Source of the DNA: Trifolium pratense
Taxonomy: Eukaryota > Streptophyta > Magnoliopsida > Fabales > Fabaceae
Length of the DNA: 64,000 bases
Assembly: GCF_020283565.1 (NCBI RefSeq)
Contig: NC_060064.1
Location: forward strand, 2,812,001-2,876,000
Direction: 5' to 3'
Numbering within the stretch: the first letter of the stretch is position 1; each line of letters begins with the position of its first letter. Shown here one piece after another: positions 17,213-64,000 of this stretch. Position numbers and translations under genes: made by a program. The notes under the pieces are model-generated. The model did not search any database, was not told the origin of the DNA, and saw only the letters and a program-made list of their open reading frames with translations.

Positions 17213-17286
17213 GGCCCATTAGCTCAGTTGGTTAGAGCGTCGTGCTAATAACGCGAAGGTCGCAGGTTCGAGACCTGCATGGGCCA
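17213..17286 (+). tRNA. tRNA-Ile (AAU anticodon)
   Basis: A 74-nt cloverleaf. The acceptor stem pairs GGCCCAT with ATGGGCC and the discriminator is A. The D arm contains TAGCTCAGTTGG (box A), the anticodon loop reads CTAATAA giving anticodon AAU, and the T arm is GCAGGTTCGAGACCTGC (box B GGTTCGAGACC). There is no intron. A run of T starts immediately after at 17287, a standard RNA polymerase III terminator, and CAA-containing sequence lies about 20 bp upstream as in plant tRNA genes. All stems appear fully paired, so a functional nuclear tRNA gene is likely. Confidence 0.97.
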
Positions 17287-17795
17287 TTTTTTTATTTATT
17301 TGCTCAATTTTTACTTCCTTTCAGCGTTCGCTCTGTGCTTTTGCTTGGGCTTTCATGGTCCAAGCATTTCAATATCATCTCTGGGCTTTTGAACATAGAT
17401 AATGTGGTGGAACTGATCTCTACGATTTGTGTTGTTTGGAAATTTCAGTTTTTTATATACTATTTCAAAACAAAAATCTTGTTCTACATAGACCTCTTTT
17501 TTGGTAGACTTATTTAATAGTTTTTTTTTTTTAGTTTTAACCCCAAAATGAAAAGCTAATCCTAGATTTTATAGAATCTATTTTTTAAAAAAGATTTTAA
17601 AAAACGTAAAGTAGGTTTAAAAATTTTAAAAAATCTCTAAAAAAAAGAATCAATAAATTTTTTCAAAACAAAATTGTTGGTTTTAAAGCTTAAACAAACC
17701 CACTCATTGATTTGTCAACACTACTTAAAATCCACTTGTCCAAATGAAATATGTCATCCACCTCCGTTGTTAAAAAGACTTTCTAATGATTCATT

Positions 17796-23200: not shown

Positions 23201-23707
23201 GACAATATTAAACTCCTAGTCAAAATCGATGTCCATCAAACTTCTACTTGTAATTTTGAAAATGAACATTGTTAAGAGTCCTACATCAGATATGATGGTT
23301 TGACTGTGAATTTATAAGTAGAGACAGTCGTTATTTTACTAGCCCGTTTTTTAGAGTTGAGGTAGGAATCTTAATAAACATCATTGATGCATGCATGTAT
23401 TATGTAAATATAGAACTATAATAAAAAGAAAGAAAGAAAAAAAACGTTACATAAATATATATTATATTCAGTTTTTTAGCATATGCATGCATGCATGTAA
23501 ATAACATATAACATATACATATTAATATTACCGTTCAAGAAAATATGCAAAGGGAGCAATGGCAATAGTTCCAAAGATTTGACGATAAGCAACAAGGATA
23601 AGAGGGTTCATGCCACCAAGAATAGCAAGCTTTGAGGTAATATTCATTCCAGCATAGGCTAATTGAGTAAGAAACATAAATATTAATGTAATGAAACTAG
23701 CTGCCAT
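20251..23707 (-). CDS. WAT1-related / UMAMIT transporter (EamA), copy A
   Basis: Seven exons on the minus strand: 23707-23532, 22498-22436, 21731-21615, 21513-21261, 21156-20998, 20695-20544, 20434-20251. All junctions are GT-AG and the frame closes to 367 residues. The protein starts [20 protein letters not shown] and contains the first EamA repeat ([22 protein letters not shown]), a second repeat with [20 protein letters not shown] and [20 protein letters not shown], and the signature [16 protein letters not shown]; ten membrane segments are expected. Nodulin MtN21/UMAMIT proteins export amino acids or move auxin; the substrate here is unknown. It is near-identical to copy C (28069-31533), differing in the first residues and a K/E change in the tail. 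Its 5' flank lacks about 1.1 kb present upstream of copy C. Synteny suggests At1g09380 as counterpart. Confidence 0.93.
20741..20900. mobile_element. 160-bp palindromic MITE in intron 5 of copy A (Mutator-like)
   Basis: The left end, CGAAAATTTCTCAACCCACC, is the inverse of the right end, GGTGGGTTGAGGAATTTTT, apart from a couple of mismatches. The inner arms (CGGAAAACGTTTTCCG; ACGTATTTTCCGAAATTTTG) also fold back. It is flanked by a 9-bp direct repeat TAAATAATA (20732-20740 and 20901-20909), the size typical of Mutator-like elements. The same insertion is present in copy C, so it predates that duplication. Confidence 0.8.
21537..21568. repeat. (TTAA)n-type run in intron 3 of copy A
   Basis: About eight tandem ATTA units; an equally long run occurs at 29356-29387 in copy C, which supports recent shared ancestry. 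Confidence 0.9.
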
Positions 23708-24001
23708 TTTTTTTTTCCTCTCTAAGTTTCACACTCTCTTTGATATCAAATGTGAGAGAGGGGGGGTATATATAAAGGAAAAGATAGGTATGAGTCCAAA
23801 AAAGAGTCCAAAAAACGTGATAAAAGAGTCCAAAAAAGATAGGTATCTTAGTAGTACTAGCTAGTAAAGTATGTATGAAAATGAAAATACTCTTCTCCAC
23901 TCACTCATCACTATAGGGTTTAATTAATTTGTCTCATCTTACCTTCTTCACCTTCACTTACCTTCACGAGAGGTTTGCTTCTAATTATGAATAAACGTTT
24001 T

Positions 24002-25480
24002 AATGCATGATGCCAGTAATTAACAACACGACGATTTACATCGAATAATTTTCTGTTAGAAGTAAGACAAAAATATGATGTTTAACTAAATGGAAATATT
24101 GGCATTATTGAAATCATGATAACTAAAACTCTACACATTTTGCTCATTAGTATTATAGCTATAAACATTGAGAAACAAAATGTTAAACGTGTACCATCAT
24201 ATATTGCTTTGAAAAGTAGATAGTTTCTGGCACGTAACTAAAACACTCATAAGCCCATAATGCGTCAAACATGCATCTCATGATTAGTGTTCTGTTTTTA
24301 GATTGTCTATATAAATGTTGTTTTTTTGTGTAGTCAAATCTCTTCATTAAGATTTAAGGATCATTAAACTAGCTAGGGTTGGTGATTAACCTTTGCTTGA
24401 TCTTCTCTTCTTTCAAATTTCCAGCTAGCAAGGAACCTCATACAAATCAACTTTTTTTTCTCTTTCCAATTTCATTAACCATTTGTTCAGTTTTATATTA
24501 AGGTAATGACTTATAAATTTTGATTTAGTAGAATTGTAAATTATTTTAAAAGCATTATTTCTAGCTAGTTTTGGTTGAAGATTTTTACAATAATTTGAAA
24601 AGACGGAAATTTTACCTAAACATTTTTTTTTAATGACAAATAATATTTTATATAATATGCAAAACGAACAAAAGAAAATTAGAATATAAAGGATATCAGA
24701 AGTAGACCTACTAACATCTAACAACCTCTAAAAACAAACACAACTCTACAAGAAGGCACGCTAAAAGTTAAACATTTTTAATCCAACACCACAAGAAGAT
24801 CTAAGGACCCCTAAACATGTAAAAAAATGTACTTCTAATTAATATTTTAAAGAAAATGTTTAATATCGTGAAGTTTTGTTAGTTGCCGGTATTTTGTAGA
24901 TAAAATTAATTTAAAAATTAAATGTAAAAAATAACATGACATTAATGGACAATATTAAACTCATAGTCAAAATCGATGTCCATCAAACTTCTACTTGTAA
25001 TTTTGAAAATGAACATTGTTAAGAGTCCTACATCATATATGATGGTTTGACTGTGAATTTATAAGTAGAGGCGGTCGTTATTTTACTAGCCCGTTTTTTA
25101 GAGTTGAGGTAGGAATTTTAATAAACATCATTGATGCATGCATGTATGCATGCATGTATGCATGCATGTATGTAAATATAGAACTATAATAAAAAGAAAG
25201 AAAGAAAGAAAAAAACGTTACATAAATATATATTATATTCAGTTTTTTAGCATATGCATGCATGTAAATAACATATAACATATACATATTAATATTACCG
25301 TTCAAGAAAATATGCAAAGGGAGCAATGGCAATAGTTCCAAAGATTTGACGATAAGCAACAAGGATAAGAGGGTTCATGCCACCAAGAATAGCAAGCTTT
25401 GAGGTAATATTCATTCCAGCATAGGCTAATTGAGTAAGAAACATAAATATTAATGGAATGAAACTAGCAACACTTGCCAT
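24002..25480 (-). pseudogene. WAT1-related gene fragment B1: exon 1 and part of intron 1
   Basis: Exon 1 (25480-25299, encoding [14 protein letters not shown] to FLER with an intact GT donor) and the adjoining half of intron 1 are nearly identical to the intact copies. The fragment ends near 24002, where sequence equivalent to intron 1 of copy C (about 30446) joins sequence equivalent to that gene's far 5' flank (about 32968). Exons 2-7 are missing. About 370 bp at 24205-24575 is absent from introns 1 of copies A and C. It could be transcribed from its own promoter-like flank but cannot encode a transporter. Confidence 0.88.
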
Positions 25481-26231
25481 TTTTTTCTCCTCTCTAAAGT
25501 TTTTTCTATTTCACACTCTTTGATATCAAATGTGAGAGAGGGGGTGTATATATATAGGAAAAGATAGGTATGAATTAAGAGAATTTCACAAGCAAAAACC
25601 GATAATCTCTTGTATTATAAGCTTGCTAACATAAGCTAACCCTAAACCAAATTTTTTCCCCTCTCATTTTCTCTTTCTTTTTATTGCAGTTTTATATTAA
25701 AAAAATACAGATTTGTCATCGAACCTGAATCCCTTACTTACAATAAAACTTTTCAACCGCTAAAACATGTGCTTCAATTATGAAAGAATTTAGGAATCCT
25801 AATACGTTAACCCTGTTTTCAATAAATTTGAACGGCAGAATTAATCACAATTTTTATTTATTTATGGATGTCTACTTAAGTTTATGTGTTCTTGATTATG
25901 TCTTTAATTTTTTTTAACCTTTAATTATCATCAATTTTTTAACTTTTAGTTATCAACAATTTTTTTTTAATAAGTAAACAAAACGATGGGGTTCCAAAAT
26001 TATTTAAAAAATATATAAAATATAAAATAAGCACATAAACAAATATAGAATAATTAGTCCATAAAATTTCATATACTACTCTTATTGAAAATGCCCTTAG
26101 AACTTTTGTATTTTTTTTTTTGTTACATATTACACCTAATTAGACCCATGCACCGCATGGGTCAAAGTTCTAGTAAATATATAAATTAAGTACTAATAAT
26201 AATACTAATAACATGATATCTAATAATGATC
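25481..26231. other. Spacer between fragments B1 and B2
   Basis: The left 100 bp resemble the 5' flank of the intact genes. The rest is AT-rich; about 25950-26231 is duplicated at 27780-28068, immediately 3' of copy C. No gene recognised. Confidence 0.6.
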
Positions 26232-26672
26232 TCATATGTGGCCGTTACCATTGGATGGTAAATAAGATTGCATTTCCATATCATTCTTCTTAATTCCTTC
26301 TTGTGGCAATGCTTCATCATCAGTAGCATCATCCACTCTGTTACTATCCATCTCTTTGCTCTTCCCCCATAAAACAGCATAAAGCCCACCAACTATGAGA
26401 ACAGACCCTATAGCCCTGCACCAAATTATAATATAGATGATGAGTAGGTAATTAATTAAGTAATTAGTTAAATTAAATTGCACATAATATAATTATAAAA
26501 TAAATAAATAAATTTCTTACATTCCAAGAAATAATTTCTCCCGGAGAAAAGCCCAACTAATCATAGCAGTGAGGATAAGCTGCATTGGGGTAAATACAGA
26601 CACATAGAGTGGGTCTTTCTTTTCAATATTCCATGAAAGTATACAATATGTAAGCCCAGTGCAAATTACTCC
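26232..26672 (-). pseudogene. WAT1-related gene fragment B2: exons 6 and 7
   Basis: Exon 6 (26672-26521) and exon 7 (26415-26232) are complete, with splice sites and the terminal GHI-stop codons. Exon 6 carries changes not shared with copies A or C. The fragment stops a little beyond exon 6, where the left arm of the intron 5 MITE is cut off after about 25 bp (near 26740). Exons 1-5 are absent. The 3' flank and the last codons match copy C better than copy A. Confidence 0.88.
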
Positions 26673-26744
26673 CTGAAATCAAAATTAGCACCATATATTA
26701 TATATAAATAATACGAAAATTTCTCAACCCACTCCTGAATTAAC

Positions 26745-27726
26745 CCACTCATTAAACTAGCTAGGGTTGGTGATTAACCTTTGCTTGATCTTCTCTTCTT
26801 TCAAATTTCCAGCTAGCAAGGAACCTCATACAAATCAACTTTTTTTTCTCTTTCCAATTTCATTAACCATTTGTTCAGTTTTATATTAAGGTAATGACTT
26901 ATAAATTTTGATTTAGTAGAATTGTAAATTATTTTAAAAGCATTATTTCTAGCTAGTTTTGGTTGAAGATTTTTACAATAATTTGAAAAGACGGAAATTT
27001 TACCTAAACATTTTTTTTTAATGACAAATAATATTTTATATAATATGCAAAACGAACAAAAGAAAATTAGAATATAAAGGATATCAGAAGTAGACCTACT
27101 AACATCTAACAACCTCTAAAAACACACACAACTCTACAAGAAGGCACGCTAAAAGTTAAACATTTTTAATCCAACACCACAAGAAGATCCAAGGACCCCT
27201 AAACATGTAAAAAAATGTACTTCTAATTAATATTTTAAAGAAAATGTTTAATATCGTGAAGTTTTGTTAGTTGCCGGTATTTTGTAGATAAAATTAATTT
27301 AAAAATTAAATGTAAAAAATAACATGACATTAATGGACAATATTAAACCCATAGTCAAAATCGATGTCCATCAAACTTCTACTTGTAATTTTAAAAATGA
27401 ACATTGTTAAGAGTCCTACATCATATATGATGGTTTGACTGTGAATTTATAAGTAGAGGCGGTCGTTATTTTACTAGCCCATTTTTTAGAGTTGAGGTAG
27501 GAATTTTAATAAACATCATTGATGCATGCATGTATGCATGCATGTATGCATGCATGTATGTAAATATAGAACTATAATAAAAAGAAGAAAAAAAACGTTA
27601 CATAAATCTATATTATATTCAGTTTTTTAGCATATATGCATGCATGTATATATATAACATATACATATTAATATTACCGTTCAAGAAAATATGCAAAGGG
27701 AGCAATGGCAATAGTTCCAAAGATTT
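26745..27726 (-). pseudogene. WAT1-related gene fragment B3: intron 1 piece and truncated exon 1
   Basis: This is a second copy of the intron 1 region seen at about 24350-25345, including the roughly 370-bp segment special to B1. It ends in only the last 49 bp of exon 1 (27726-27678). Exon 1 breaks off at a T-run, followed by reiterated ACATATACATATA sequence and a jump into sequence matching 25950 onward. It arose from B1 or its sibling, not directly from A or C. Confidence 0.85.
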
Positions 27727-28068
27727 TTTTTTAATAACATATACATATAACATATACATATAACATATACATATTAATATTACGTTATCAACAATTTTTT
27801 TTAATAAGTAAACAAAACGATGGGGTTCCAAAATTATTTAAAAAATATATAAAATATAAAATAAGCACATAAACAAATATAGAATAATTAGTCCATAAAA
27901 TTCTCTATACTACTCTTATTGAAAATGCCCTTAGAACTTTTGTATTTTATTTTTTTTTGTTACATATTACACCTAATTAGACCCATGCACCGCATGAGTC
28001 AAAGTTCTAGTAAATATATTAATTAAGTACTAATAATAATACTAATAACATGATATCTAATAATGATC

Positions 28069-31000
28069 TCATATGTGGCCGTTACCATTGGATGGTAAAT
28101 AAGATTGCATTTCCATATCATTCTTCTTAATTCCTTCTTGTGGCAATGCTTCATCATCAGTAGCATCATCCACTCTGTTACTATCCATCTCTTTGCTCTT
28201 TCCCCATAAAACAGCATAAAGCCCACCAACTATCAGAACAGACCCTATAGCCCTGCATCAAATTATAATATAGATGATGAGTAGGTAATTAATTATGTAA
28301 TTAGTCAAATTAAATTGCACATAATATAATTATAAAATAAATAAATAAATAAATTTCTTACGTTCCAAGGAATAATTTCTCCCGGAGAAAAGCCCAACTA
28401 ATCATAGCTGTGAGAATAAGCTGCATTGGGGTAAATACAGACACATAGAGTGGGCCTTTCTTTTCAATGGTCCATGAAAGTATACAATATGTAAGCCCAG
28501 TGCAAATTACTCCCTGAAATCAAAATTAGCACCATATATTATATATAAATAAATAATACGAAAATTTCTCAACCCACCCCTGAATTTCTCTTTTCGTTTC
28601 GGAAAACGTTTTCCGATTTTTTTTTGTGTAAATTTTACACTAAAAAAACACTTTGTAACGTATTTTCCGAAATTTTGGGGGGTGAAAAAGAAACATGAGG
28701 GGTGGGTTGAGGAATTTTTAAATAATAGTACTACATATAGTGTACTAGCTTGAATAGTTAAATTAAACTATGTGAACAAATAAAAGCAATTAATTAATTA
28801 AATGAATGTAGTTACCGAATAAAGAGAAGAGGTAAGTCTCATAGTATCAACGAGTGACCAAGATGAGACACTATGATCAAAAAACAAAGCAATGATCACA
28901 CATTGAAAACTTGCTAAGAATAACATGTATGCTGTGCTTGTATATGGTACTGGAAAAGTCCTGCACATATCTGCCTGAAAATATAATTAATTAACAAAAG
29001 TATATATATTAGTATTAATTAATTTTTTGTTAATTAATTCATACTAAATAGTAGTTATAATATTATTGCATTGCTTACTTGAATGATGAACCATAATGAC
29101 CAAATAAGAGCGCTAAGAATTAAAGCAATAGGGCCAACAAGGGAGTTTGAGGAGGAATCACCACCACTACCACCTTGAACTCTTTGTGCATAACTCCAAT
29201 GAATACTTGAGTCTGGAATACTAATTACTTTTCCATGGTAAAATGATAAAAGTATTGCTCCACCAACACACAAAATGGTTCCTACAACCTTTGCTACACC
29301 ACTCTTCGTCTTTATTCCCAATTTCTCTTGTCTACCACAATCACCAATAATAAAATTAATTAATTAATTAATTAATTAATTAATTAGAAAATTTCTTAAT
29401 TTTAAAATCAGTATTTTCTACTAATTAATTACCTGAATAAGATTGCAAGAACAAATGTAAAAGCTGGGAGCAAATTGGTGAGTGCACATGCAATTGTTGC
29501 TGTTGAATATTTTAGCCCCACGAAATACAGAACTTGATTTCCTGTTACTCTGCATTCATATAAATGTATACTCAACACTTTGTTTTAAGTCTAAATTGTA
29601 TTAAATAATTGAAAATTATCTTTAGCAACCAAATTTTGCAATTGAATATTTAGTACATAGTTTTTTTTTTTGACACATATTTAGTACATAGTTTTTTTTT
29701 TTTCACCATCAGTTTTTTTTGATAAATTTTTTTTGGTATTTTAAGACAAAATTGAAATTTTAGAAATTATTTTAAGGCAAAATTGAGATATTTTGTTCAA
29801 AATTGATTTTTATTTTTTGTATGAAATTGAGACTTTGTCCAAACTTTAAAAATTCCCTAACTCCGCCACTGGTTATCTCCGCGTCATCACCATTGATAGA
29901 GTAATCAAAGGTAGAAATAATTTAACAGACATAACACAATTTCAAAAGGGATATTTAACCTTTTGAAAAAATTTGGAGATATTCGAGGATTTTCGCAATT
30001 TCAAAGAAGCGTTTGTATATTATATTCACTCAATATATATTTTAAAACTTCAAGTCAGCACGAAATTCACCGTAAATTCAAACATACACTACATTTGATA
30101 AATTTATAAAATGTCACTAAACTAGTGATCAATTTGACTTTTTGATCTCTAAATCAATTACACTGTATATGATGATGTATTTTATAGTGGATTAAGTAAA
30201 TAAAACAAAAAAGGTTGCAATATGAGCATAAAGTAGAAATGTCAAAAGATTACCCTGTGATGGAAGATAACAAAATCTGAACCATAATGCGCTTTGTCAT
30301 CCTTGGAACCATATCCCTAAAGAAGGGACAAAAAATAATACTTAATAAAACGTGACATAAAATATCAATCTTATGTGTAGCAACCTATATATAGTGCATT
30401 TTTTTTTTTTATCCTCATCTTAAATTAAAATCACAAAAGTAAGTAATGCATGATGCCAGTAATTAACAACACGACAATTTACACCGAACAATTTTCTGTT
30501 AGAAGTAAGACAAAAATATGATGTTTAACTAAATGGAAATATTGGCATTATTGAAATCATGATAACTAAAACTCTACACATTTTGCTCATTAGTATTATA
30601 GCTATAAACATTGAGAAACAAAATGTTAAACGTGTACCATCATAACGTGAAGATTTTTACAATAATTTGAAAAGACGGAAATTTTACATAAACATTTTTT
30701 TTAATGGCAAATAATATTTTATATAATATGCAAAACGAACAAAAGAAAATTAGAATATAAAGGATATCAAAAGTAGATCTACTAAGATCTAATAACCTCT
30801 AAAAACACACACAACTCTACAAGAAGGCACGCTAAAAGTTAAACATTTTTAATCCAACACCACAAGAAGATCTAAGAACCCCTAAACATGTAAAAAAATG
30901 TACTTCTAATTAATATTTTAAAGAAAATGTTTAATATCATGAAGTTTTGTTAGTTGTCGGTATTTTGTAGATAAAATTAATTTAAAAATTAAATGTAAAA

Positions 31001-31533
31001 AATAACATGACATTAACGGACAATATTAAACTCCTAGTCAAAATCGATGTCCATCAAACTTCTACTTGTAATTTTGAAAATGAACATTGTTAAGAGTCCT
31101 ACATCAGATATGATAGTTTGACTGTGAATTTATAAGTAGAGGCAGTGGTTATTTTACTAGCCCGTTTTTTAGAGTTGAGGTAGGAATCTTAATAAACATC
31201 ATTGATGCATGCATGTATTATGTAAATATAGAACTATAATAAAAAGAAAGAAAGAAAAAAACGTTACATAAATATATATTATATTCAGTTTTTTTGCATA
31301 TGCATGCATGTATATATATATATATATATAACATATACATATTAATATTACCGTTCAAGAAAATATGCAAAGGGAGCAATGGCAATAGTTCCAAAGATTT
31401 GACGATAAGCAACAAGGATAAGAGGGTTCATGCCACCAAGAATAGCAAGCTTTGAGGTAATATTCATTCCAGCATAGGCTAATTGAGTAAGAAACATAAA
31501 TATTAATGGAATGAAACTAGCAACACTTGCCAT
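28069..31533 (-). CDS. WAT1-related / UMAMIT transporter (EamA), copy C
   Basis: Seven exons: 31533-31352, 30316-30254, 29549-29433, 29331-29079, 28974-28816, 28513-28362, 28252-28069. The frame closes to 369 residues. It has the same domain plan as copy A: two EamA repeats, about ten membrane helices, C-terminal LWGKSKE followed by a hydrophilic tail ending GNGHI. Compared with copy A it reads [12 protein letters not shown] at the start and has Glu for Lys in the tail; I saw only silent changes elsewhere. Its introns, including the 9-bp-duplication MITE and the TTAA run, are almost unchanged, so duplication or gene conversion is recent. The last 200 bp resemble fragment B2, making this copy a mosaic. 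The upstream region (to about 32970) is more complete than that of copy A. Substrate unknown. Confidence 0.93.
28559..28718. mobile_element. 160-bp palindromic MITE in intron 5 of copy C
   Basis: Same element, length and 9-bp flanking repeat TAAATAATA (28550-28558 and 28719-28727) as at 20741-20900. It is carried along by the gene duplication and is not an independent insertion. Confidence 0.8.
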
Positions 31534-34500
31534 TTTTTTTTCCTCTCTAAAGTTTTTTCTGTTTCACACTCTCTTTGATATCAAACTTTGTGTAGAGAGT
31601 GTTAAACAGAAGAGAAACGAGGAAATGTGTGCTAGTACATATGAAATGTGAGAGAGGGGGGTTGTATATATAGGAAAAGATAGGTATGAATTAATTGTTA
31701 GAAAGTGTGTGAGTTTTTATAAAGTGTGTGAGTTATGACAAGGTGCGTGATAAAAAGAGTCCAAAAAACGTTTGCAACAATTTTTTCCTAATTTTTTTTA
31801 AGGAAAAAAGAAACGGTTACAATCGATTTCTTGCTACACATTTTGCTTATGTACAAGGTTGGAAGCTTTCACTTCATTTAGAGTCTTCAAGCAACTACTC
31901 ATTTGTTAACTAGGTATACTTCCAAATCCCTTCACTCACACATGATATACACAAATTATTTTTGAATGCATTCGGTCGTATTAACGTGTACCCTAAGAAC
32001 ATATCTTAAATAAATAAAATATAAAAAATTTATAATAAAAAATATAACAGTTTAATCTTTAAAAATTTAAACGCACACCTTTTAATATACATATTTATTT
32101 ATTTAGTTCATTGACATATGCACTAAAGACACATATTAGCATTTTCCTCGTTATAATTTACAAACAAAACAAATTTATTTTACATGTTAAATTTCAAATA
32201 GTATTACTATGTCACTCATTGCGTAAGAAATGGAATAAATTTTTACTATAAAAGTGCAGGAAAAAAGAACAACTGTGTCCCTCATTGTGGTGGAATGGAG
32301 AAGTAGCAATTAATAAAATTAAATTTTGAGTTCAAATTTAACCAATGAATGAAAACGGTTTAGAAATGAAAGGAGTGTACAGTACAGTATCTACTATAGC
32401 TGGCAATGTAAGTGAATTTGAAGTCATAAGCATAGTTGGACAAAACACAATAAATAAAGATGGTCCCATCACATTATATTCATTCATGTTAATATCGATC
32501 ACTTGCATTTTCCACCCTACCATAGGGCTAGGGCTATACCTTAGCTACCTTATTCTACGTTAACAACTGTTTGCCAACAATTGCATGATGATGCTTAATG
32601 CTTCTCTTCCATGAATTAAGCTGTTTTTCATATTAAGAAAAAGAAACAAGTTTCAATTTCAGCTTTTCAAGGTTGCTATTGTTTCAAGCTTCAATGCCAA
32701 ATTAATTACGTTATTTAATTTTTTTCTTGGGAAATGAATTCTAATGCATGCAGTGTTAGTAGTAAATATTTGTGGGGGTGCAGTTAAGAGTTAAGACTCA
32801 ACCGGTATCTTCTAGTAGTACTAGCTAGTAAAGTGCTCTATGTATGAAAATGAAAATACTCTTCTCCACTCACTCACACTATAGTCTATAGGGTTTGTCT
32901 CATCTTACCTTCTTCAGCTTCACTTACCTTCACGAGAGGTTTGCTTCTAATTATGAATAAACGTTTTAATTGAGCTACACGAATATATACTCATATAGAC
33001 ATTTGCTTCAAAATCATTTTTCCGTCTACATTTCAAACTTCTCCATATGTATGCCTATAATTAATCATCGTCTATATACGTCACATCACATTTGTCACGT
33101 ACATATACGTGTTGTGAAATTAATAAATTATTAAGAGAAATATATATATTAATTACACTAAATACAAGAAAACTTTACACGAATGTTTGTCACTGGAGTA
33201 ATTGTTTAAGGCAATCTTTTAAAATTCAGGTTGGATATCAAATCGGTGAGAGTATTACTTCATTAGTCCAACTATTAGAAATAAATCACATAAAATCGAA
33301 TAACTAAATTGAATAAATCAATCTCTATAACAAAATCATATAGGTATTAAACCAGGTCGAACATGATGACTCACTCTCTAAAAAAATTCATGACCCTTAA
33401 AAAATGTGAAAGTTTTAAAATCCAATAATTTCACAAGTTCATTCGTTAAATTCAAATTTTAAAACATAGTCATTACACACACAACAAAATAGTATAAACC
33501 CAAATAAATTTTAATCAAAATCTAACTCTCATATTTGTATGAATTGTATTAGTTATCACTCTCTGATTTTCTAATCTCAATTTTAATAGTAGTATTTTTT
33601 CAAAAAGAAAAAAAAATTAAAATAATGTTGTTTTGCTCTTTTAAAAATTAATAAGCATTGAATCGGCCGATTTGAAAAAATCCTCGGTTCATCGATTTTT
33701 TCCGGTTTTGACCAGTTCACTTCGGTTCCTTCCAGATCAATAGCATATTCAGTCCAACTATCAGACCAGATCGGCGACCCTCCGATTTTCAGTTTAACCG
33801 ATTCGGTCCACTTTTTAAAACATTGGTTTAAGGAGTATAAGTCACACATTTTTAAAAGTAACAAGGATTTTGAGTTTTATATCGAGTTTCGACATGCAAC
33901 AATGTTAACACTTTTATAGAGAGTTAGACGCTCATTTGTGTCTTACAAAATTCATGAGATTAGTAACGTGGACAGAGACGGATCCAGAAACTTATCATAC
34001 CGGAGACCGAAAAATAGTAAAATAATAAAAATTAATTTATTTATTGATAGAGATTATTTTTGTTTTCACCGTCCATGTAAAAAAATTTATGTTAATTATC
34101 ATATTATATTTACGATGTTTTCATCTTTGTTCGGTTATCAGTGCCTGGCTAATCGTCTTCGAGGAATCTGTGTAGCACAAAAAATGAGATATTCCCTCTC
34201 AATTAAATTTTATTCATACACAAGTGTTAAATATTGAACTTTTGACCACTTGTTTAAAGGACTCAAAACTCTTACCACTAGGACCAACTTATTTTTTAAT
34301 TAAAAGGTTATATTTTTAATAATCCAACACTTATAATTGTTCAACAATATAAATATTTTTACACTATCAATGCATATCAATTAAATACTTATTTATATAA
34401 TATAAATGATAAATAACAAATATAATTATAAATTATGATACACAAATTATATAAGATATAATATGTATGTATTTGAGACATTTGTCTTTGTAGTTGTATG

Positions 34501-53804: not shown

Positions 53805-56800
53805 CTGAGTTCTTCCCCATTCTTTAACCTTTCCTCAAAGAAACAAAGATAAAAAACCAAACCTCTCAAGAAACTTCATCATGGCCAGTTCTTCGCAGCC
53901 ACTCAACACCGACGCCGGCGACGACAACGTGCTCAACGTTCCGTCCTCTCCGCCGCCGCAGCATAACACCGTGCTATCACCGGTGCGTGACGATACCACC
54001 GTGGCACACGGTCCAGAAACCGACCCCCGCGACGGACGGGAAACCTCACTTTCCTCCGATGAAGAGGACGTCGAGGCCCTAACCGATCGTCGGAAGGGAA
54101 AACGCCAGCAATTCAAGCAAGAAGCTCCGGCAAACAACGCCGAACAGCCCGCCGTCTTGGCCAACTCTGAGATCGCAGCCTTGATCGCTGCCCTCAAACA
54201 AACAACGGAGGCCATGCAGGCTCAAAATCGTCGACTGGACGAGCAAAGCGAAAGGATTGCCGCGCTGGAGAAAAGCCGGCCACCTAGAAAGACCAACTCT
54301 CCCCCGCGGAGACGCCAAGCTGATCCTTCCCCTCCCCGTCCGGCGGCCGTCAAACATCGACGCCCCGACCTAGAGAGGGTAGAAGTTACTCCTCGGAAGA
54401 AGGACCGCACTCCTCCCCATCGCGAGGGTAGATCCTCTCCGGGCAAGAAAGGGAAGCACGAAGCCCCTCGCCGCCATTCACCGCAAGGGTTGGCACTGAT
54501 GTCCAAACAGGGCATGTCGAGCAGCTATCGTCCCCGCGGCTACAAGTCTCGTAGTCCAACACCGATGCCCGGTGATTCTCCCCGGTCTTCCGAGGACCGT
54601 TCTCCCAACGGGAGTGACGAGGGTGATCCCCGATGCCCCCTGTCCGCAGACATTCTGAAGAAGCGTGTTCCAAAGGGCTTCGAGAGACCTCCCACGCTCC
54701 CCGCGTATGATGGTTTGACCGACCCCGACGATCACATAGCCAATGTCAACGCGAACCTGGATTTCAGGAACATTAGCGGTGCCATTAGGTGCAGACTGTT
54801 CCCAACCACGCTGAGGAAGGGAGCAATGGCATGGTACCAAAGCCTGCCCCCTCAATCCATCCATTCATGGAGGGATCTTACTGAACAGTTTTGCAGACAC
54901 TTCACTGCTTCCCGCAAGCACCCAAAGACTGTGCATGCCCTGGAGGCCATATACCAAGCTGAAGACGAAACTCTCCGCAACTTCGTCGAGAGATTCAACA
55001 AAGAGGCTGTGCAGGTCGAAACGACCGACGACATGAAAAAATACTTGCTGCAGAGGGGCCTTCGCCCGGGCAGCGATTTTGCCAAAGCTGTGGGCATAGA
55101 AAAACCACCCACCTGGGACGACCTCCTCCTAAAAGCTCAAAAGTACATTGATTACGAGGAAGTCCAGGCAGCTGATGTCGCCCGCCTTGCCCGACCTGGA
55201 AGCAGCCACCCTGCCCGCGAGCCCTCCCATAGGAACGATGACAGGGGTGGCGACAAGGGAAGCGATAGAGGCGGCGATAGGGGTGGCGAGAGGGGTAGAG
55301 ACAGAAGGAAGGGCGAAAGACGAGAGCCTCGTGGCCCTCCAAGCACATTCGCCACCTACACCCCCCTCGTCAAATCACGGGGAGAGATATTCGCTGAGGT
55401 TCACATCTCTGAGTTCGACAGAGCAAATGTGAAGCAACCAAAGCCAACCCCCCTGAAGCCCGGCCAAGACAAAAATAGGTATTGCAGATACCACAAGAGT
55501 TATGGTCACAGGACCGACGACTGCATCCAACTGAAGGATGCTATTGAAATCATGATCAGAAACGGACAACTAAGACAGTTCGTAAGAAGAAACAATGATC
55601 CTCGACCAGAAACCGCGAAGACTCGTGCGGTCGAGGAGGTACCTCCACAGCCTACCGGGCAGAAAAACGTCAAGCAGATAGCTATGAGCGTATCCCGGCC
55701 AGAAGATTTTGCTATCCCCAGCGGTTCTGGGGACACCTATACTGGTCCTACGCTTAGCACGGGGGACTACTTCACAGACTCACTCGTCATATCCGGCGGT
55801 CACATGGACAAACACACCGTCGGATCAATAAAAAGAAAATTCGAGGATCTCATCAACACGTCCTCGAATATGAACGCAACACTGGACAAGGCGAAGGGGC
55901 GATCAATGCCTTTAGCCTTCTATCAAGAAGAGCTGCCCGGTGGGACAGCCAATTTCCAAATTCCCCTCCTCGTCCGGGCAGACATGGCCAACATGGACGT
56001 TCGTCGGGTCCTCATCGATCCGGGGAGCTCCTGCGACATCATGTACGCCAGTTTGTTCAGGACCTTACAGCTGGACGAGACACACCTCACCCCGTACTTG
56101 GGCTCAGATCTCACAGGATTCAACGGGGCAACCACTAGGCCTTGGGGCTATGTCGACCTCATAGTTACTTTTGGCTCCGAGGAAACGGCCAAGTCAATCA
56201 GGGTCAAATTCTTGGTCGTAGACTGCCCCTGCCTCTACCAGTGCATCATCGGCAGGACGGCCATAGCAGACCTGATGGCTGTCCCCTCCACCGCCCACCT
56301 GAAGATGAAATATTACACTCATAAGGGGCAGGTTGCTACTTTGCACGGGGACATCGAAGCCGCGAGGAGGTGCTTTGACGCAGCATCCAAAGGCAACAAC
56401 TTCATTGGCAAAGCTCCTGAAGCAAAGAAGCCAAAGCCTTCCTCGGAAACACCACCAAAGCCATCCCCGGAAGCACCACCAAGTCTGCCCGGTCCAAGTG
56501 TGAGCTCTGTTGATCTTGACAGCCGCACCTCCAAGAAAGAGCATAAGGAGGAGAAAAAGCTGAGGAAGGAGGAGAAGGAGGACGACGAGGCGAGCAAAGA
56601 GCATTATCGCCCCATTCCAGATGGAGACTTTGAGATAGTCCAGTTTGGCGAGGATCCAGAAAAAGGAGTCAAGATTGGTACGGGGCTCCCCGAGTTGGCG
56701 AGGAAGCAGCTGAAAGCCTGCCTTAGAGAAAATGCTGACTTGTTCGCATGGCACGCTGCCGACATGCCCGGGCTGGATCCAAACATCGCTTGTCATCAAC

Positions 56801-59576
56801 TTACTGTCGACCCACTTGCTAGTGCTGTAGTGCAACGTAGGCGTAGGCAGTCTCCCGAAAAAGCGGAGGCTGCTGAAAAAGCTGTAAAAGACCTCCTAGA
56901 GGCAAATTTTATTTCTGAAGCCAGATACACTACCTGGTTGTCAAACGTTGTACTAGTTAAAAAATCTAATGGAAAATGGCGCATGTGTGTTGACTATACC
57001 GATCTCAATAGGGCTTGCCCTAAAGATTCCTATCCTCTACCTTGCATTGATAAATTAGTCGATAATTCTTCTGGCTTTAAATTATTGTCTTTTATGGATG
57101 CATATTCAGGATACAACCAAATCCCAATGGCTGTGGCCGACAGGGGAAAAACAGCTTTCATGACCGAGTCGGGCAACTATTACTACAACGTAATGCCCTT
57201 CGGTCTAAAAAACGCTGGTGCTACATACCAGCGGATGATGAACAAAGTATTCCGGGCAGAAATAGGCGACATGCTCGAAGTCTACATGGACGACATGATC
57301 GTAAAATCCCATGAGGAAATCGACCATACCGCCCACTTGCGTAAGGTCTTCGAGCAGGCCAGAAAACACAACATGCGATTCAACCCAGAAAAGTGCACCT
57401 TCGGGGTACGAGCAGGAAAGTTCCTCGGATTCTACCTAACAGAACGAGGAATCGAAGCCAACCCCGACAAATGTCGTGCCTTTACGGAGCTCCCAACTCC
57501 GAGCAACAAAAAATCCATACAAACCCTGAACGGAATGCTGACCTCATTGTCTCGCTTCGTAGCAAAATCTGCTCAACACGCATTACCGCTTTTCAAATTA
57601 CTAAGGAAAGAAGCTGTGTTCGAATGGACGGACGAGTGTGAACAGGCCCTCCAACATCTTAAGAAGGCCCTGTCCGAACCCCCAGTCCTCTCGCGCCCGG
57701 ATGTCGAGGAAGTGTTATACATCTACCTCTCCGTCGCATCTGAGGCCGTCAGCGCAGCCCTTGTCCGTGAAACAACGCAAGGACAAAAACCAGTGTACTT
57801 CACAAGCAAGGCTCTCCAGGGGCCCGAACTCAGATATACACAAATCGAGAAGGTGGCCCTTGCCTTGATCAACGCAGCAAGAAGACTACGTCACTACTTC
57901 CTAGCACACACAATCGTAGTCCGAACCGACCAACCAATCAAGTCATTGCTTGGTCGACCAGATATGGCGGGCAGGATGCTCAAATGGTCCCTCGAGCTTT
58001 CCGAATTCGACATTCGTTACGAAAGCAGAAAAGCACTAAAATCACAAGTCCTAGCAGACTTTGTGGCCGAAATGACGAGTCCAGCCTCCTCGACAAGCGA
58101 GGCAGACAAATGGACAATATTCGTCGACGGAGCGTCAAGCTCCACGGGAGCAGGAGCAGGAATTATCCTGGAAAACGAAAATGGGATCATCATCGAAGTA
58201 TCCCTAGCACTATCCTTCCCGACATCAAATAACCAAGCAGAATACGAAGCCTTCCTAGCAGGGCTACGGTTGGCCGAGGACATGGAGGCAAAAGAAGTAA
58301 AAATTTTCACAGATTCACAACTTGTTGCCTCACAAGTATTGGGAGAATATCAAGCCAAAAATGACAATCTCTCTGAATATCTAGCATTAGTGAAGGAAAA
58401 AATCACTAAGTTCGAATCCGTGGAAGTGCAACACGTTCCACGCGAGCACAACAAACGGGCAGACATCCTGTCCAAACTGGCGAGCACAAAAAAGAAAGGC
58501 GGAAACAAATCCGTCATTCAAGAAGTACTCCCTCGACCAAGCATCGAGAAGACGACCAACGTCCTCGACATAAATGTCATTGGCGACAAAAATTCCTGGA
58601 TGACCCCCGTCTACAACTTCCTCGCAAACGGAACCCTCCCCGACGATCAGAAAGAAGCTGCAATAATAAGACGTCGAGCATGCGCATACGTCATCCTCGA
58701 CGGAAAGTTATACAGACGAGGGTTCTCAATCCCGCTCTTAAAATGTGTCGACGAGGAAACAGTCGACTACATCCTGCGCGAGGTTCACGAGGGGATCAAC
58801 GCCCAGCACCTGGGAGGAAGATCGCTGGCCAGGAAAGCTCTTCGAGCAGGATACTACTAGCCCACCATGCAGCAAGACGCAAAGGACCATGTGAAAAAAT
58901 GCGACAAATGTCAACGACATGGGGACATGCACCTGGCTCCTCCCCATGAACTCAAATCTTTGTCGTCACCATGGCCCTTCGCTTGGTGGGGCATGGACAT
59001 ACTTGGCCCCTTCACAAAGGGACTCCACCAAAATAAATTTTTAATAGTCGCCGTGGACTATTTCACCAAGTGGGTAGAGGCAGAACCCCTCTCCGACATA
59101 ACGTCGTTCAGGATACTCCGTTTCTTCAAACGCGACGTACTCTGCCGATTTGGAATACCACAAGCCGTCGTCACAGACAACGGGACACAATTCACGGACA
59201 AAGGATTCCAAGACTTCCTCGCTGCTCTGGGGACCAAGCAACATTTTACTTCAGTGGAACATCCCCAAACTAACGGGCAAGCCGAGGCCGCCAACAGAGT
59301 AATCCTGCGCGGCCTACGACGAAGATTGGATCAAAACAAAAAGAAATGGGTCGAGGAGCTCGAAAGCGTCCTTTGGGCCTATCGCACGACACCACACTCC
59401 ACAACCGGGGAGACTCCATTTAGAATGGTATATGGAACAGAAGCAGTCATCCCCGTGGAGGTGGGCGAGCCATCTCGCCGAACCGAGCAGCCCCTCGAAG
59501 AAGAAATGAACGACGAAGCTCTCCGTGAAGAGCTAGATCTCGTCGAAGAAATTCGTACGGGGGCATCCCTTCGGGA

Positions 59577-59976
59577 TGACGCAGTACGGAAGCGCTAGGT
59601 TAGCAAAACGCTAAACCTAATGGATAAAGACAAGCCGCAAACACAAACTTGTCAAAATAGGGTTTCGGAGTCCACCGAAAGAGTAATTTGGAGTCCACCA
59701 AATTTGAGAAAATTCTCTATAATTTTATTGAATGAAAAAGTTGCCTTCAAGGCTACAAGAGTTTACCTTAAATAGTAGTGAAAAATAAAAATAACAAATC
59801 TTCTAAAAGATTGTAAAAATAAAAATAACAAACCTAGCTAAATAAAAATAACAAATCTACCTAAAATATAAAAATAACTAATCTAGGTGAAATATAAAAA
59901 TAAGAAATCTACCTAAAATATAATAAAACTAAATCTAACTAAAATAATAAAATACTGAAGAAATCCTCCTACATCA
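59577..59976 (-). repeat. 3' LTR of the zf-XS element
   Basis: Reads TGACGCAGTACGG to CCTCCTACATCA on +. Identical by eye to 61304-61703. In element orientation it supplies the last 21 codons and stop of the zf-XS protein. It contains repeated AAAATAACAAATCTA units. Confidence 0.92.
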
Positions 59977-61256
59977 GTCTCCTCTACCTCAAAAGAACTC
60001 GACCCCGAGTTCTCATCTTGATAAGGAGCTTCCCTTGCAAGTTGATTCCTCCAATGAACAAGAGACCACCCTCCTGGATCCCATTGAGTGAAGTGAGAGG
60101 ACCCGTCTTGTGCCAACACATCCAAATTACCACCGGGGTCCCATTCCTCAAAGATGGCATACAAAGTTGGAAATTTATCACAGAAGGATGTTTGACCCAC
60201 CTTAGTTAACATGTATGAGTTAGTGTCACTAACATCAAGTTCACTAATTAGGTAATAATAATGGTGCTGAATGAGGGAAGTTTGAGAACTCCAAGTATCA
60301 ACTTCAAGTGGCTCATTCTCACTTATTTGAATCTCGGTTGCTGCATCCATGATCCTTTCAAACGCAACCATTGATTCATTGTGATATTTAGACGCTGGTA
60401 CTATGCAATCTGTGACTGTCGTCGCCTCTGTTTGGACACAGATTAAAGGAGCAGATTGCACATTGGGATTGATGACGTTTGAAACCATAGCTGATTTGGT
60501 GTTATCGATTTCAAAATCCACGACTTCATCGTGTTGGGAATCTCTAATAACATCGTGAACTTGCTCGACTTCATCGGCCTCTTTATTTTCATCTTTGGAT
60601 TCTTCACCTTCAACTGAAACATCTGGTTCAACAACTACTTCAGTTTCTTTCGGTTTGGATTTATCAGCAGAATCGTCAAGTTTCTCGGGATGAGATGGTT
60701 GGTTATCATCTAGGGTTTCATTAGCTATGTGACGTAGTTGAAAATTGTTGGCATGATTGTTGTTGTTGGAATTATTGAGGAGGCTCCATGCTTCATCGAA
60801 TTTAACCTTAACATACCAATTAATATACGTTATCAAAACAGAATGTTTAGCAATATCTTTAATCGTCTTACGCAAGTTACCTGACATTCTGTAAGCATGT
60901 CTCAAAAGGTCGGACAAGGAGTAATCTTTGTTGCAACAAAACGGACAACGATATGTCGAATCAGAGATTTTAAACGTGTAGTAATCATCCTTCAACCTTT
61001 TGTAGTATCTACGCTCATAGTATTCCAAATCAGATTCACCACGCGTATGTTCTGATTTTATGTAGGTAACAATAGTTTGGTTGTTATTACGAACCCTAAT
61101 AACCGGAATTCGTTCTCCTCCCCTATTCGGATTGATTCTGTTGTTGTTAACGTTGTTGGATAACGTCGTCATCTGTGTTGTCAGAGCGGTGATGGCCCAG
61201 GTTAAACCCGCTATGGCACCATCAAACTCTGTTTTCATCACCAGTTGATCTCCCAT
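59913..61256 (-). CDS. zf-XS domain protein encoded by an LTR retrotransposon
   Basis: A single frame of 447 residues, starting 34 bases downstream of the primer-binding site and ending inside the 3' LTR. Residues 1-60 resemble a retrotransposon gag N-terminus (ALTTQMTTLSNNVNNN, then NRGGERIPVIRV). Residues 77-150 are a zf-XS domain: EYYERRYYKRLKDD, ISDSTYRCPFCCNKDYSLSD, LLRHAYRM, then AKHSVLITYINWYV. Putative zinc ligands are Cys104, Cys107, His120 and His138. Residues about 190-265 are strongly acidic, and 160-170 are Asn-rich. Residues about 365-427 (EEWDPGGNLDVL, QWDPGGWSLVHW) look like retroelement-derived sequence. Known: zf-XS occurs in SGS3, IDN2 and FDM proteins of RNA silencing, usually followed by XS and coiled-coil domains, which are absent here. 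Capture of a host gene fragment by the element is my inference. Function unknown. Confidence 0.85.
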   Translation of the reverse strand: MGDQLVMKTEFDGAIAGLTWAITALTTQMTTLSNNVNNNRINPNRGGERIPVIRVRNNNQTIVTYIKSEHTRGESDLEYYERRYYKRLKDDYYTFKISDSTYRCPFCCNKDYSLSDLLRHAYRMSGNLRKTIKDIAKHSVLITYINWYVKVKFDEAWSLLNNSNNNNHANNFQLRHIANETLDDNQPSHPEKLDDSADKSKPKETEVVVEPDVSVEGEESKDENKEADEVEQVHDVIRDSQHDEVVDFEIDNTKSAMVSNVINPNVQSAPLICVQTEATTVTDCIVPASKYHNESMVAFERIMDAATEIQISENEPLEVDTWSSQTSLIQHHYYYLISELDVSDTNSYMLTKVGQTSFCDKFPTLYAIFEEWDPGGNLDVLAQDGSSHFTQWDPGGWSLVHWRNQLAREAPYQDENSGSSSFEVEETDVGGFLQYFIILVRFSFIIF

Positions 61257-61289
61257 CTGATCACGTTAGAAAAGAACAGGAGAAACCAG

Positions 61290-61301
61290 GCTCTGATACC
61301 A
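61290..61301 (-). other. Primer-binding site (initiator tRNA-Met) of the zf-XS element
   Basis: Minus strand TGGTATCAGAGC, the standard site complementary to the 3' end of initiator tRNA-Met, begins two bases after the LTR end. It defines 61304-61703 as the 5' LTR. Confidence 0.93.
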
Positions 61302-61303
61302 AC

Positions 61304-61703
61304 TGACGCAGTACGGAAGCGCTAGGTTAGCAAAACGCTAAACCTAATGGATAAAGACAAGCCGCAAACACAAACTTGTCAAAATAGGGTTTCGGAGTCC
61401 ACCGAAAGAGTAATTTGGAGTCCACCAAATTTGAGAAAATTCTCTATAATTTTATTGAATGAAAAAGTTGCCTTCAAGGCTACAAGAGTTTACCTTAAAT
61501 AGTAGTGAAAAATAAAAATAACAAATCTTCTAAAAGATTGTAAAAATAAAAATAACAAACCTAGCTAAATAAAAATAACAAATCTACCTAAAATATAAAA
61601 ATAACTAATCTAGGTGAAATATAAAAATAAGAAATCTACCTAAAATATAATAAAACTAAATCTAACTAAAATAATAAAATACTGAAGAAATCCTCCTACA
61701 TCA
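61304..61703 (-). repeat. 5' LTR of the zf-XS element
   Basis: Identical by eye to 59577-59976 and of the same 400-bp length, pointing to a very recent insertion. On the minus strand it starts TGATGTAGGAGGATTTC. Confidence 0.92.
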
Positions 61704-61958
61704 CGGGAAGCCACCCTTAAACAAAAAATAGCTGCCCGACATGACGTCAAAGTCATCAAAAGAGAATTTGAACTGGGCAGCCTCGTCCTAAGACGAAATG
61801 CTAAGGACTCCCAGGATGGTAAACTGGCGGCCAACTGGGAAGGACCATATCGCGTCATTGACAAAACAGAAAATGGCGCATACTATCTCGAGGATCTTCG
61901 AGGAAAGAAACTTCCTCGACCGTGGAACGCCCAAAAATTAAAACAGTATTATAGCTAA

Positions 61959-62665: not shown

Positions 62666-64000
62666 TCAGGTGCTCTCATCATGGCCCTCTGGGTTATCCT
62701 CCGGTGCCTGGTCCTCCCCGACAGCTTCCTCCTCAGCTTCCTCCTCCTCCTCGTCATCACCATCCTCATCGTACTTCTCCTCCTCAAGGGCCATTTTCTT
62801 ATACTCTTCAGGAATAACAATCTGCCCGTTCTCAACCCGTTTGAGCTTGTGAATGCCATCAGTAATCAAGCCATGCTCGGCATTCACAACCCTGAGTTGG
62901 GCGATCGCATTCTTCCACCCATGCACCATGCTCGCCAACATTAAGCCCCCTTGCCTCTTGATTTCCTTAACCAGGTCCGCTCGACTTACCAGCCTGGAAG
63001 TCTCAATGGCCTCGTCGGCAGCTGGAGCAAGCTGGGATTGCAGGTCAGCTATCACCTCCTCCAGCCTCTTCTTCTCCTTGGCACCCCGGGTCTCCACATC
63101 CTCGAGCTTCTTCTTTGTATCTTTCAGCTCATCCCGGGTCAACCTAACATCCTCCAGCAAATTCCCATAATTCTCCTGTTTCCCCCTCAGATCGATCAGC
63201 TCACCCTCCATCAGCACAATTTTTCCCTCCAGCTTGGCGTTCCGGGCAGCCAGCTTTTCCACCTCATGAGTTGGCCCCCCTTCATTTAACACCAAGGCTG
63301 TCTCCGCCAGCCGGATGACAGCAGCAACATCTTCGTTGAGCTGGTTCTGTCGGGCAGATGAAGAAGCACCCAGGATATAATTCCTCTCCGATGCAGGCAC
63401 CTGAAGAGGATTCTTATCAAAAAATTTCCTGTTGCTCAAACACGCGGGGAGGACAAAGCCACCTTCCCCCTCCGACAAGTCGACGATAGGCGTCATCTGC
63501 TCCTCCCTCTGCCTTTTAACTCGACCTCCCGGGGTTCCCGCTGAGCTTCCCACCGGTGAAGACTGACTAATGCTCCCCGAAGCAGCTTGTTCAGCAATCA
63601 AAACACTAGGCTTGGATTTCCTCGCCTTCTTCTTTGATTTCTCTCCCTTCTGCTCAGCAGCTATCCTCATCAACTCGGAAGCTAGATCAGCCATTCTACC
63701 TGCAAAGGTGGAAACGTGGTCAGAAACACGGGGAGGAACTCAAAACATCAAAATGCTGAATATAAAACAAGTAAAAAACGGGCAGGAATTGAAGAAAATA
63801 CCCAGCAAAGTATTCTCAGCTGCAACAGTCTTGCACGACAGTAATAATTTGGTATTAACAAAACGAGGCTCGATCCTCGGTTGACCATGCCTATCTAAAG
63901 CAACTTCCCCTAAACTAGTCATTACTCTACAAGGCTTAAAGCCATCCACGTAGGCCTTAAGCTTCTCAAAGCCTGCCATCTCCGCCGGGGTCAGGTCCTC
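62666..64000 (-). CDS. Antisense extra ORF (aORF) of the Tat element, 5' partial
   Basis: Exon 2 is 63699-62666. Upstream exon sequence is 64000-63802, open to the window edge and including FEKLKAYVDGFKPCRVM and the segment just before TVAAENTLLG. The intron 63801-63700 is GT-AG and restores the frame as LLG-RMADLASELMR. Exon 2 encodes basic KSKKKARKSK near its start, a nuclear-localisation-like cluster, a Ser-rich stretch, a central coiled coil (about LAARNAKLEGKIVLMEGEL to LEEVIADLQSQL) and a Glu/Asp-rich tail (DEDGDDEEEEEAEEEA) ending DEST. Antisense ORFs of this type are known from Retand-like Tat elements; some are annotated as putative gypsy-type transposase or plant transposon protein domains, and their role is unclear. 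It is transcribed opposite to gag-pol and has no visible break. Confidence 0.8.

What the first reader, a model, noticed from the sequence alone, without database searches (positions are those of the whole stretch)
59577..61703. A young LTR retrotransposon whose only gene encodes a zf-XS (SGS3/IDN2-type) zinc finger
Seen: two seemingly identical 400-bp LTRs, a 5-bp target duplication, an initiator-Met primer-binding site, and one 447-codon frame containing the STYRCPFC...LLRHA...AKHSVL pattern. Known: zf-XS belongs to plant RNA-silencing proteins (SGS3, IDN2/FDM). Inference: the element captured part of an RNA-directed DNA methylation gene and has kept it open, raising the possibility that the product interferes with silencing or serves as the element's nucleic-acid-binding protein in place of gag. 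I know of no described element of this kind, but could not search.
Basis: partly seen in the sequence, partly recalled or inferred. Interest (0 to 1): 0.92.

Follow-up and report, generated by a model that had tools for sequence, protein, structure and literature searches.

The report
Retrotransposon keeping a stolen silencing-gene finger
In red clover, a small jumping element that lacks the genes to move itself carries in their place a zinc-finger segment that evidently came from a plant gene of the DNA-methylation (silencing) pathway; the codons of that segment bear the mark of selection while neighbouring cargo drifts, so it likely does a job for the element, perhaps blunting the plant's silencing of it.

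Summary
In detail: 59577-61703 is an intact LTR element with identical 400-bp LTRs, target duplications and one 447-codon frame with a zf-XS finger. It lies in a Trifolium pratense genome, inside a Ty3/gypsy integrase frame, and is one of 23 near-identical full-length copies, all open to codon 433. The frame is a composite: a Ty3/gypsy gag start, a finger from an FDM4-like RdDM gene, other cargo, the end of pol. A copy with a 1459-codon gag-bearing frame shares the LTR end, leader and gag start: a likely autonomous partner. Element fingers from Trifolium and Medicago form one clade within FDM4-type proteins (99/97), so the insertion is young but the capture old. Across 40 loci the finger is constrained (omega 0.53, p about 1e-4); linker (0.91) and TPX2-bearing tail (0.86), in subsets of these loci, do not differ from neutral. 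Variants seen once look neutral: copies decay, source lineages keep the finger. It lacks the XS part that IDN2 uses, with its coiled coil, to bind RNA, so a decoy disturbing RdDM is likelier than a gag substitute. Function is untested, and family members without the finger multiply too.

The parts
59577..61703 (-). whole element, 2127 bp, non-autonomous LTR retrotransposon
   Evidence: LTRs, TSD, PBS, PPT; 23 full-length copies
61304..61703 (-). 5' LTR (400 bp, TG...CA)
   Evidence: identical to the 3' LTR
59577..59976 (-). 3' LTR (400 bp)
59572..59576 (.). target-site duplication CGGGA, left
61704..61708 (.). target-site duplication CGGGA, right
61290..61301 (-). primer-binding site TGGTATCAGAGC (initiator-Met type by recall)
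   Evidence: an autonomous-type copy has it with one base different
59977..59990 (-). polypurine tract GAGGTAGAGGAGAC before the 3' LTR, also encoding ..EVEET
   Evidence: sequence; its role is by position
59913..61256 (-). 447-codon open frame
   Evidence: 23 of 23 full-length copies open to codon 433
61122..61256 (-). remnant of a Ty3/gypsy gag N-terminus (about codons 1-45)
   Evidence: tested with the 98%-identical P0002: matches the N-termini of P0150, P0148 and P0180, 0 of 1000 shuffles as good
60819..61064 (-). segment homologous to FDM4 (codons 65-146), under purifying selection
60840..60947 (-). zf-XS zinc finger (codons 104-139); presumed ligands C104, C107, H120, H138
   Evidence: Pfam PF03470; these residues kept in 39, 37, 40 and 39 of 40 loci
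60552..60806 (-). linker (codons 151-235), no selection detected
   Evidence: omega 0.91, not different from 1
59958..60035 (-). remnant of the pol C-terminus (codons 408-433, ENSGSSSFEVEETDVG)
   Evidence: tested with P0002: matches the C-termini of P0150, P0151 and P0053, 0 of 1000 shuffles as good
59814..59952 (-). 26-bp tandem array (5.5 units) inside the LTR; second copy 61541-61679

Best explanation
This is a young, non-autonomous Ty3/gypsy-derived LTR retrotransposon of red clover whose single frame joins remnants of gag and pol to a zf-XS finger homologous to FDM4-type silencing genes, and it likely uses that finger as a decoy that would disturb RNA-directed DNA methylation of its own family. 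Shown: anatomy, copies, a gag-bearing relative with a matching LTR end, a single finger clade, and lower dN/dS in the finger than in its neighbours. Inferred: that relative or its kin supply capsid, reverse transcriptase and integrase. Inferred: lineages that change the finger leave fewer copies, so the translated finger is used. As the frame has no XS or XH domain, the finger would occupy a partner or site of FDM/IDN2 proteins without completing the complex (dominant-negative). Untested: expression, binding partners, effect on methylation.
For: Anatomy and youth: (19 of 23 full-length copies with perfect 5-bp TSDs; 13 substitutions in 20 LTR pairs, 8144 bp). The frame's two ends resemble the two ends of Ty3/gypsy polyproteins. 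A copy whose gag rows lie in a 1459-codon frame shares the last 105 bp of the LTR (103 identical), PBS but for one base, leader and gag start (score 261 against a maximum of 37 in 300 shuffles). Element fingers are one clade beside XS-bearing proteins, 99/97, 98% of bootstrap trees. Selection: finger omega 0.53, lnL -1355.6 against -1363.4 at omega 1; linker 0.91 and tail 0.86 without significant gain. Shared variants N:S 33:28 (omega 0.42, p 0.0008), singletons 48:13; holds for variants in three or more loci (p 0.014) and in subfamilies A and B alone (p 0.018). Subfamily B lost the gag start but keeps an ATG before the finger frame. A prominent role of zf-XS in RdDM has been suggested, uncharacterised (PMC3935573, passage).
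Against: No expression, protein or methylation data. Members without the finger multiply: 20 of 124 rows match only the C-terminal part (14 of them in frames of 271-274 codons), so it is not needed for movement. Under a deamination-only mutation model the neutral N/S is 1.73, and the shared variants' 1.18 is then only mildly low. The A/B fixed differences alone (5 S, 7 N) are not significant. 7 of 40 loci have stops in the finger segment and 1 a frameshift. Within the young subfamily N:S is 29:10, neutral. The finger-against-rest comparison of shared variants is modest (one-sided p 0.026).
Confidence: 0.45

Rival explanations
1. The finger serves the element as a nucleic-acid-binding or packaging part, a substitute for the lost gag zinc knuckle, attached to the remaining gag N-terminus so that the RNA enters capsids made by the partner.
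For: The finger follows a gag N-terminus, where relatives have capsid and zinc knuckle; the finger is selected.
Against: IDN2's zinc finger is not required for RNA binding (PMC3342958, passages); subfamily B has lost the gag N-terminus and still keeps the finger; finger-less members multiply.
Confidence: 0.2
2. The finger is neutral cargo: one more host fragment in a gene-capturing element family, seen open because copies are young.
For: Other members carry TPX2, importin/HEAT, WGR, pectinesterase and kinase fragments; young copies evolve neutrally; the TPX2-bearing tail is not distinguishable from neutral.
Against: Finger omega 0.53, p about 1e-4, while linker and tail in subsets of the same loci look neutral; presence in Trifolium and Medicago.
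Confidence: 0.2
3. The frame is kept open only because a translated long frame protects the RNA from decay; residues do not matter.
For: Long frames occur whatever the cargo.
Against: It predicts open frames but not fewer amino-acid changes in the finger alone.
Confidence: 0.08
4. One or a few copies are domesticated host genes under host selection and the rest are their decaying kin.
For: Some copies are annotated as genes in T. pratense, T. repens and M. truncatula.
Against: Young copies with perfect TSDs carry the intact frame, so intact frames are being propagated by retrotransposition.
Confidence: 0.07

Closest known systems
[quoted passage not shown] PMC8704663, passages)
   Same: Two LTRs, one frame, no pol, a larger relative with matching ends.
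   Different: The frame is not gag: capsid and zinc knuckle are missing, a finger from a host silencing gene stands in their place.
TRIM elements and TRIM-borne gene fragments (PMC4717578, passages)
   Same: Small, non-autonomous, tandem arrays sharing LTRs, host exon fragments.
   Different: Larger LTRs and a long coding frame with a selected domain; TRIMs are described there as without coding capacity.
VANDAL transposons with VANC anti-silencing proteins, and KIU elements with a captured Ulp1 domain (PMC13317346 passages; PMC10398659 abstract)
   Same: A mobile element keeps a protein or captured domain over long times; VANC counteracts silencing; VANC targets are tandem repeats, and this LTR has a 26-bp array.
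   Different: DNA transposons, other proteins; here the part comes from the silencing pathway itself and no anti-silencing effect is shown.
IDN2/FDM family, FDM4-like (donor type)
   Same: zf-XS and the residues around it, about 68% identity to T. pratense FDM4-like P0041.
   Different: No XS or XH match in the element's frame.
Bs1 and other plant LTR elements with captured host gene parts (Bs1 seen in the reference list of PMC13317346; otherwise recalled)
   Same: Host gene part inside an LTR element.
   Different: One capture found in two genera with region-specific purifying selection.

Membership tests
LTR retrotransposon, non-autonomous, Ty3/gypsy-derived | Paired TG...CA LTRs, 5-bp TSD, PBS, PPT | tested here: met
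LTR retrotransposon, non-autonomous, Ty3/gypsy-derived | No capsid, protease, RT, RNase H or integrase in the element | tested here: met
   Pfam gives only zinc-finger models for the frame. Other minus-strand ORFs of 60 aa or more touching the element are two (65 and 63 aa) inside the frame's span and one (74 aa) running in from the flank; these were not scanned
LTR retrotransposon, non-autonomous, Ty3/gypsy-derived | Parentage: ends shared with a gag-pol element | tested here: met
   protein ends; LTR end, leader and gag start. The clover partner is known from 201 bases, its gag rows and a listed frame of 1459 codons (one TAG listed in its second gag row); its RT and integrase were not read
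TR-GAG | Single frame encodes a gag protein | tested here: not met
   no Retrotrans_gag match in the frame, only the gag N-terminal stretch
TRIM | Very short LTRs and internal region, no coding capacity | tested here: not met
   400-bp LTRs, 1327-bp internal region, selected coding segment; size limits of TRIMs recalled
IDN2/FDM (XH/XS) family | zf-XS finger | tested here: met
   (score just under the Pfam cut-off)
IDN2/FDM (XH/XS) family | XS and XH domains | tested here: not met
   no Pfam XS or XH match, against P0041 which has both
IDN2/FDM (XH/XS) family | coiled coil | not tested
   no coiled-coil prediction was run
Anti-silencing element proteins (VANC-like) | Loss of methylation at the element's own copies when expressed | not testable with these tools
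   needs plants

The most novel reading that the evidence does not exclude
An LTR retrotransposon lineage has turned a piece of the host's own RdDM machinery (the FDM4 zf-XS finger) into a maintained anti-silencing factor, a class-I counterpart to VANC, and shares it as an exchangeable cassette among recombining subfamilies that shuffle other host domains onto it.
Probability: 0.33. Interest if true: 0.93.

Novelty: new variant of a known kind. Interest (0 to 1): 0.8.

Why it matters
Host fragments captured by plant transposons are common (PMC13317346, passages). Here one fragment, from the pathway that silences transposons, is maintained while its neighbours in the same frame drift. That makes testable whether LTR elements fight RdDM with stolen parts, and it isolates the zf-XS finger, whose function in IDN2/FDM proteins is called uncharacterised in PMC3935573 (passage). 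A sequence search with an FDM4-like protein found a solved structure for its XS part only.

Tried and rejected
Chance or artefact: rejected by 23 full-length copies, 19 with clean TSDs. Independent captures from several FDM4 genes: not favoured, one element clade with 99/97 support and shared non-FDM sequence upstream of the finger. I first took a one-residue deletion (NKDY-SL) as an element-only mark; an XS-bearing protein, labelled host, has it too (P0080), so it is not used. Proof of capture from spliced mRNA: homology starts exactly at the ATG of an FDM4-like paralogue (L088), after an acceptor-like TTTTCAG, but no upstream exon matched in about 4 kb before that copy or 2.5 kb before a second one, so undecided; the gene of P0041 itself was not located. 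Collections of viral contigs (query P0015) and prokaryote genomes (query P0009): no relatives. PDB with the frame: only a chance-level hit, E 3.2. Structure prediction: not available. Literature, listings only unless said: zf-XS with retrotransposon, 1 paper, a root GWAS; SGS3, zinc finger and non-autonomous LTR retrotransposon, 1 review; XS domain, LTR retrotransposon and captured, 0; XS domain with LTR retrotransposon, 0; three of four of factor of DNA methylation, transposable element, captured, XS zinc finger, 1 paper on MORC6; Trifolium pratense with LTR retrotransposon, 38 papers, 15 listed, one looked into by passages. I found no description of such an element in these; they cover open-access PMC only.

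Full report
What is there. The window lies in a 413.6-Mb genome held here as G000 (C6:2812001-2876000). The closest protein to the frame is a Trifolium pratense one at 98% identity, and lengths of G000 contigs (59,241,982; 57,907,604; 46,137,615) equal those of T. pratense records. The element spans 59577-61703 and reads on the minus strand: two identical 400-bp LTRs, CGGGA on both sides, primer-binding site, polypurine tract, and one frame of 447 codons whose last codons lie in the 3' LTR. It sits inside the integrase frame of another Ty3/gypsy element: the plus-strand frame with the integrase core (58867-59598, Pfam rve) runs into it from the left, and a plus-strand frame goes on to its right (61710-61955).

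Family in this genome. A protein search gave 124 rows (a lower bound by the tool's own note). Of these, 71 cover codons 104-139 (my count of the listed rows): 25 of this subfamily (A), of which 23 are full length, and 46 others. All 23 full-length copies are open to codon 433; two have stops at codons 434 and 435, inside the LTR-coded tail. Of the 23, 19 have perfect 5-bp duplications; two form a tandem pair whose outer flanks match each other (ATTTA); two were not resolved by the script. Twenty LTR pairs (those 19 and the broken copy L032/L035) hold 13 substitutions in 8144 bp, about 60,000 years on average at a recalled rate of 1.3e-8 per site and year. Copies L018, L028, L030 and L031 join nearly the same interior to different LTR variants, and L034 joins an A front to a B rear, so I read the family as recombining. 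Subfamily B lacks the gag start, keeps an ATG directly before the finger frame, and ends in a fragment of a TPX2 gene (Pfam TPX2 in the B-type gene model P0006).

The frame is a composite. Tested with the 98%-identical P0002, the first 48 codons match the N-terminus, and codons 406-434 the C-terminus, of Ty3/gypsy polyproteins such as P0150 (gag, protease, RT, RNase H, integrase, SH3), with 0 of 1000 shuffles as good. The C-terminal match overlaps the polypurine tract, so part of it is a DNA constraint. In G000, close gag relatives (70% identity or more) sit in frames of up to 1459 codons. In one of them (C7:44738292-44739926; one TAG is listed in its second gag row) the last 105 bp of the LTR (103 identical), the PBS but for one base, the leader and the gag start align with this element (score 261 against a maximum of 37 in 300 shuffles). 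I saw only 201 bases of that copy, so its RT and integrase are inferred from frame length.

The finger. Codons 65-145 match the FDM4-type XH/XS protein P0041 of T. pratense at 68% identity. Of that protein only the finger and the residues around it are present: no Pfam XS or XH match. In a tree of 45 rows chosen from fetched proteins (28 element; 17 labelled host, of which 16 carry Pfam XS and P0097 a partial XS by eye) the element fingers are one clade, 99/97 and 98% of bootstrap trees, beside the XS-bearing P0080; the 14 host rows with a named source are legumes. The clade holds M. truncatula (P0036, P0056, P0085) and Trifolium rows, so the capture most simply predates their split; PMC9277957 uses 17.23-32.3 million years as its calibration (passage). 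Horizontal transfer or very similar repeated captures are not excluded.

Selection. I used 40 loci: this copy plus 39 of the 46 finger-covering rows outside subfamily A (the 7 left out all lie in tandem arrays; the other 24 A rows were left out as near-identical). Seven have a stop and one a frameshift in the finger segment. For the 87-codon segment (codons 64-150), codon models give omega 0.53 with lnL -1355.6, against -1363.4 for the best fit at omega 1 over a grid of kappa (39 distinct rows; likelihood ratio about 15.6, p about 1e-4). An earlier run on 20 loci gave 0.58. In subsets of the same loci the linker gives 0.91 (33 rows, gain 0.2 lnL) and the B tail with the TPX2 fragment 0.86 (17 rows, gain 0.9 lnL), neither different from neutral. 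Variants seen once have N:S 48:13; variants shared by two or more loci 33:28 (omega 0.42, p 0.0008; bootstrap range 0.25-0.74), single against shared p 0.007. In the linker shared variants are 38:17 and in the tail 48:20, both near neutral. Among shared variants the finger differs from linker plus tail (one-sided p 0.026). Pairs of loci with intact fingers mostly gave omega 0.28-0.67, pairs with the decayed L078 or L086 about 0.5-2.4. The presumed zinc ligands persist in 39, 37, 40 and 39 of 40 loci. Results against: in the young subfamily N:S is 29:10, neutral; A/B fixed differences alone are 5 S and 7 N, not significant; under a deamination-only model the expected neutral N/S falls to 1.73. 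My reading: each new copy decays freely, while the lineages that give rise to new copies keep the finger.

How it most likely works. Inferred: a gag-pol relative with a matching LTR end supplies the machinery. The finger product most likely interferes with FDM/IDN2-type RdDM as an incomplete copy. In IDN2 the XS and coiled-coil parts suffice for RNA binding and the finger is not required (PMC3342958, passages), so a gag-like RNA-binding role is less likely, though not excluded. Mutants of IDR genes, whose proteins lack zf-XS, showed no clear methylation change at the loci tested, unlike idn2/fdm combinations, and the authors took this as a hint of a prominent zf-XS role in RdDM, still to be characterised (PMC3935573, passages). 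Against any essential role: 20 of 124 rows match only the C-terminal part and are multicopy without the finger.

Other cargo. Relatives join the same ends or the same finger to importin/HEAT (P0026), TPX2 (P0006, P0031), WGR (P0034), pectinesterase (P0035), kinase (P0017), a gypsy protease (P0022), and WGR plus PFK plus myosin in one frame (P0055). Some of these may be gene-model fusions. The family looks like a domain shuffler in which the finger is the part that selection retains.

Noticed in passing
window 53881-59598 and 61710-61955, plus strand: Ty3/gypsy element: a 1659-codon frame with gag, RT and RNase H and a following frame with the integrase core (Pfam); the element of this report is inserted in the integrase frame. 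Resemblance to the Tat/Ogre group is recalled only.
   Followed up: partly
window 62666-63694, minus strand: A 342-codon antisense frame downstream of that integrase, without Pfam match; possibly an extra ORF of that gypsy element.
   Followed up: partly
window 20235-31572: Several interleaved repeat families of 164-300 bp reported length, 2-4 copies each, mostly 97-100% identical with one copy at 87%; looks like a recent local duplication array.
   Followed up: no
window 59814-59952 and 61541-61679: 26-bp tandem array (5.5 units) in each LTR; VANC targets in Arabidopsis are also tandem repeats (PMC10398659 abstract), a lead only.
   Followed up: no
window 59994-60013: Perfect 8-bp inverted repeat AGAACTCG-GGGT-CGAGTTCT just before the polypurine tract, in the codons for the conserved ENSGSSS (seen).
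   Followed up: no
G000 C1:46933962-46940917; C2:55979675-55982744; C7:8103111-8105439; C2:1508514-1510668: Tandem arrays of these elements spaced about 1.5-1.7 kb, as described for TRIMs (PMC4717578).
   Followed up: partly
P0009, P0012 (T. repens), P0036, P0056 (M. truncatula): Element-type frames annotated in public genomes as XH/XS or zf-XS genes; likely mis-annotated transposon frames.
   Followed up: partly
G000 C4:37722260-37724542: Five zf-XS matches over the Pfam cut-off within 2.3 kb, an unusual tandem finger array, perhaps in a host gene.
   Followed up: no
window 17212-17287, plus strand: tRNA-Ile (AAT) gene.
   Followed up: no
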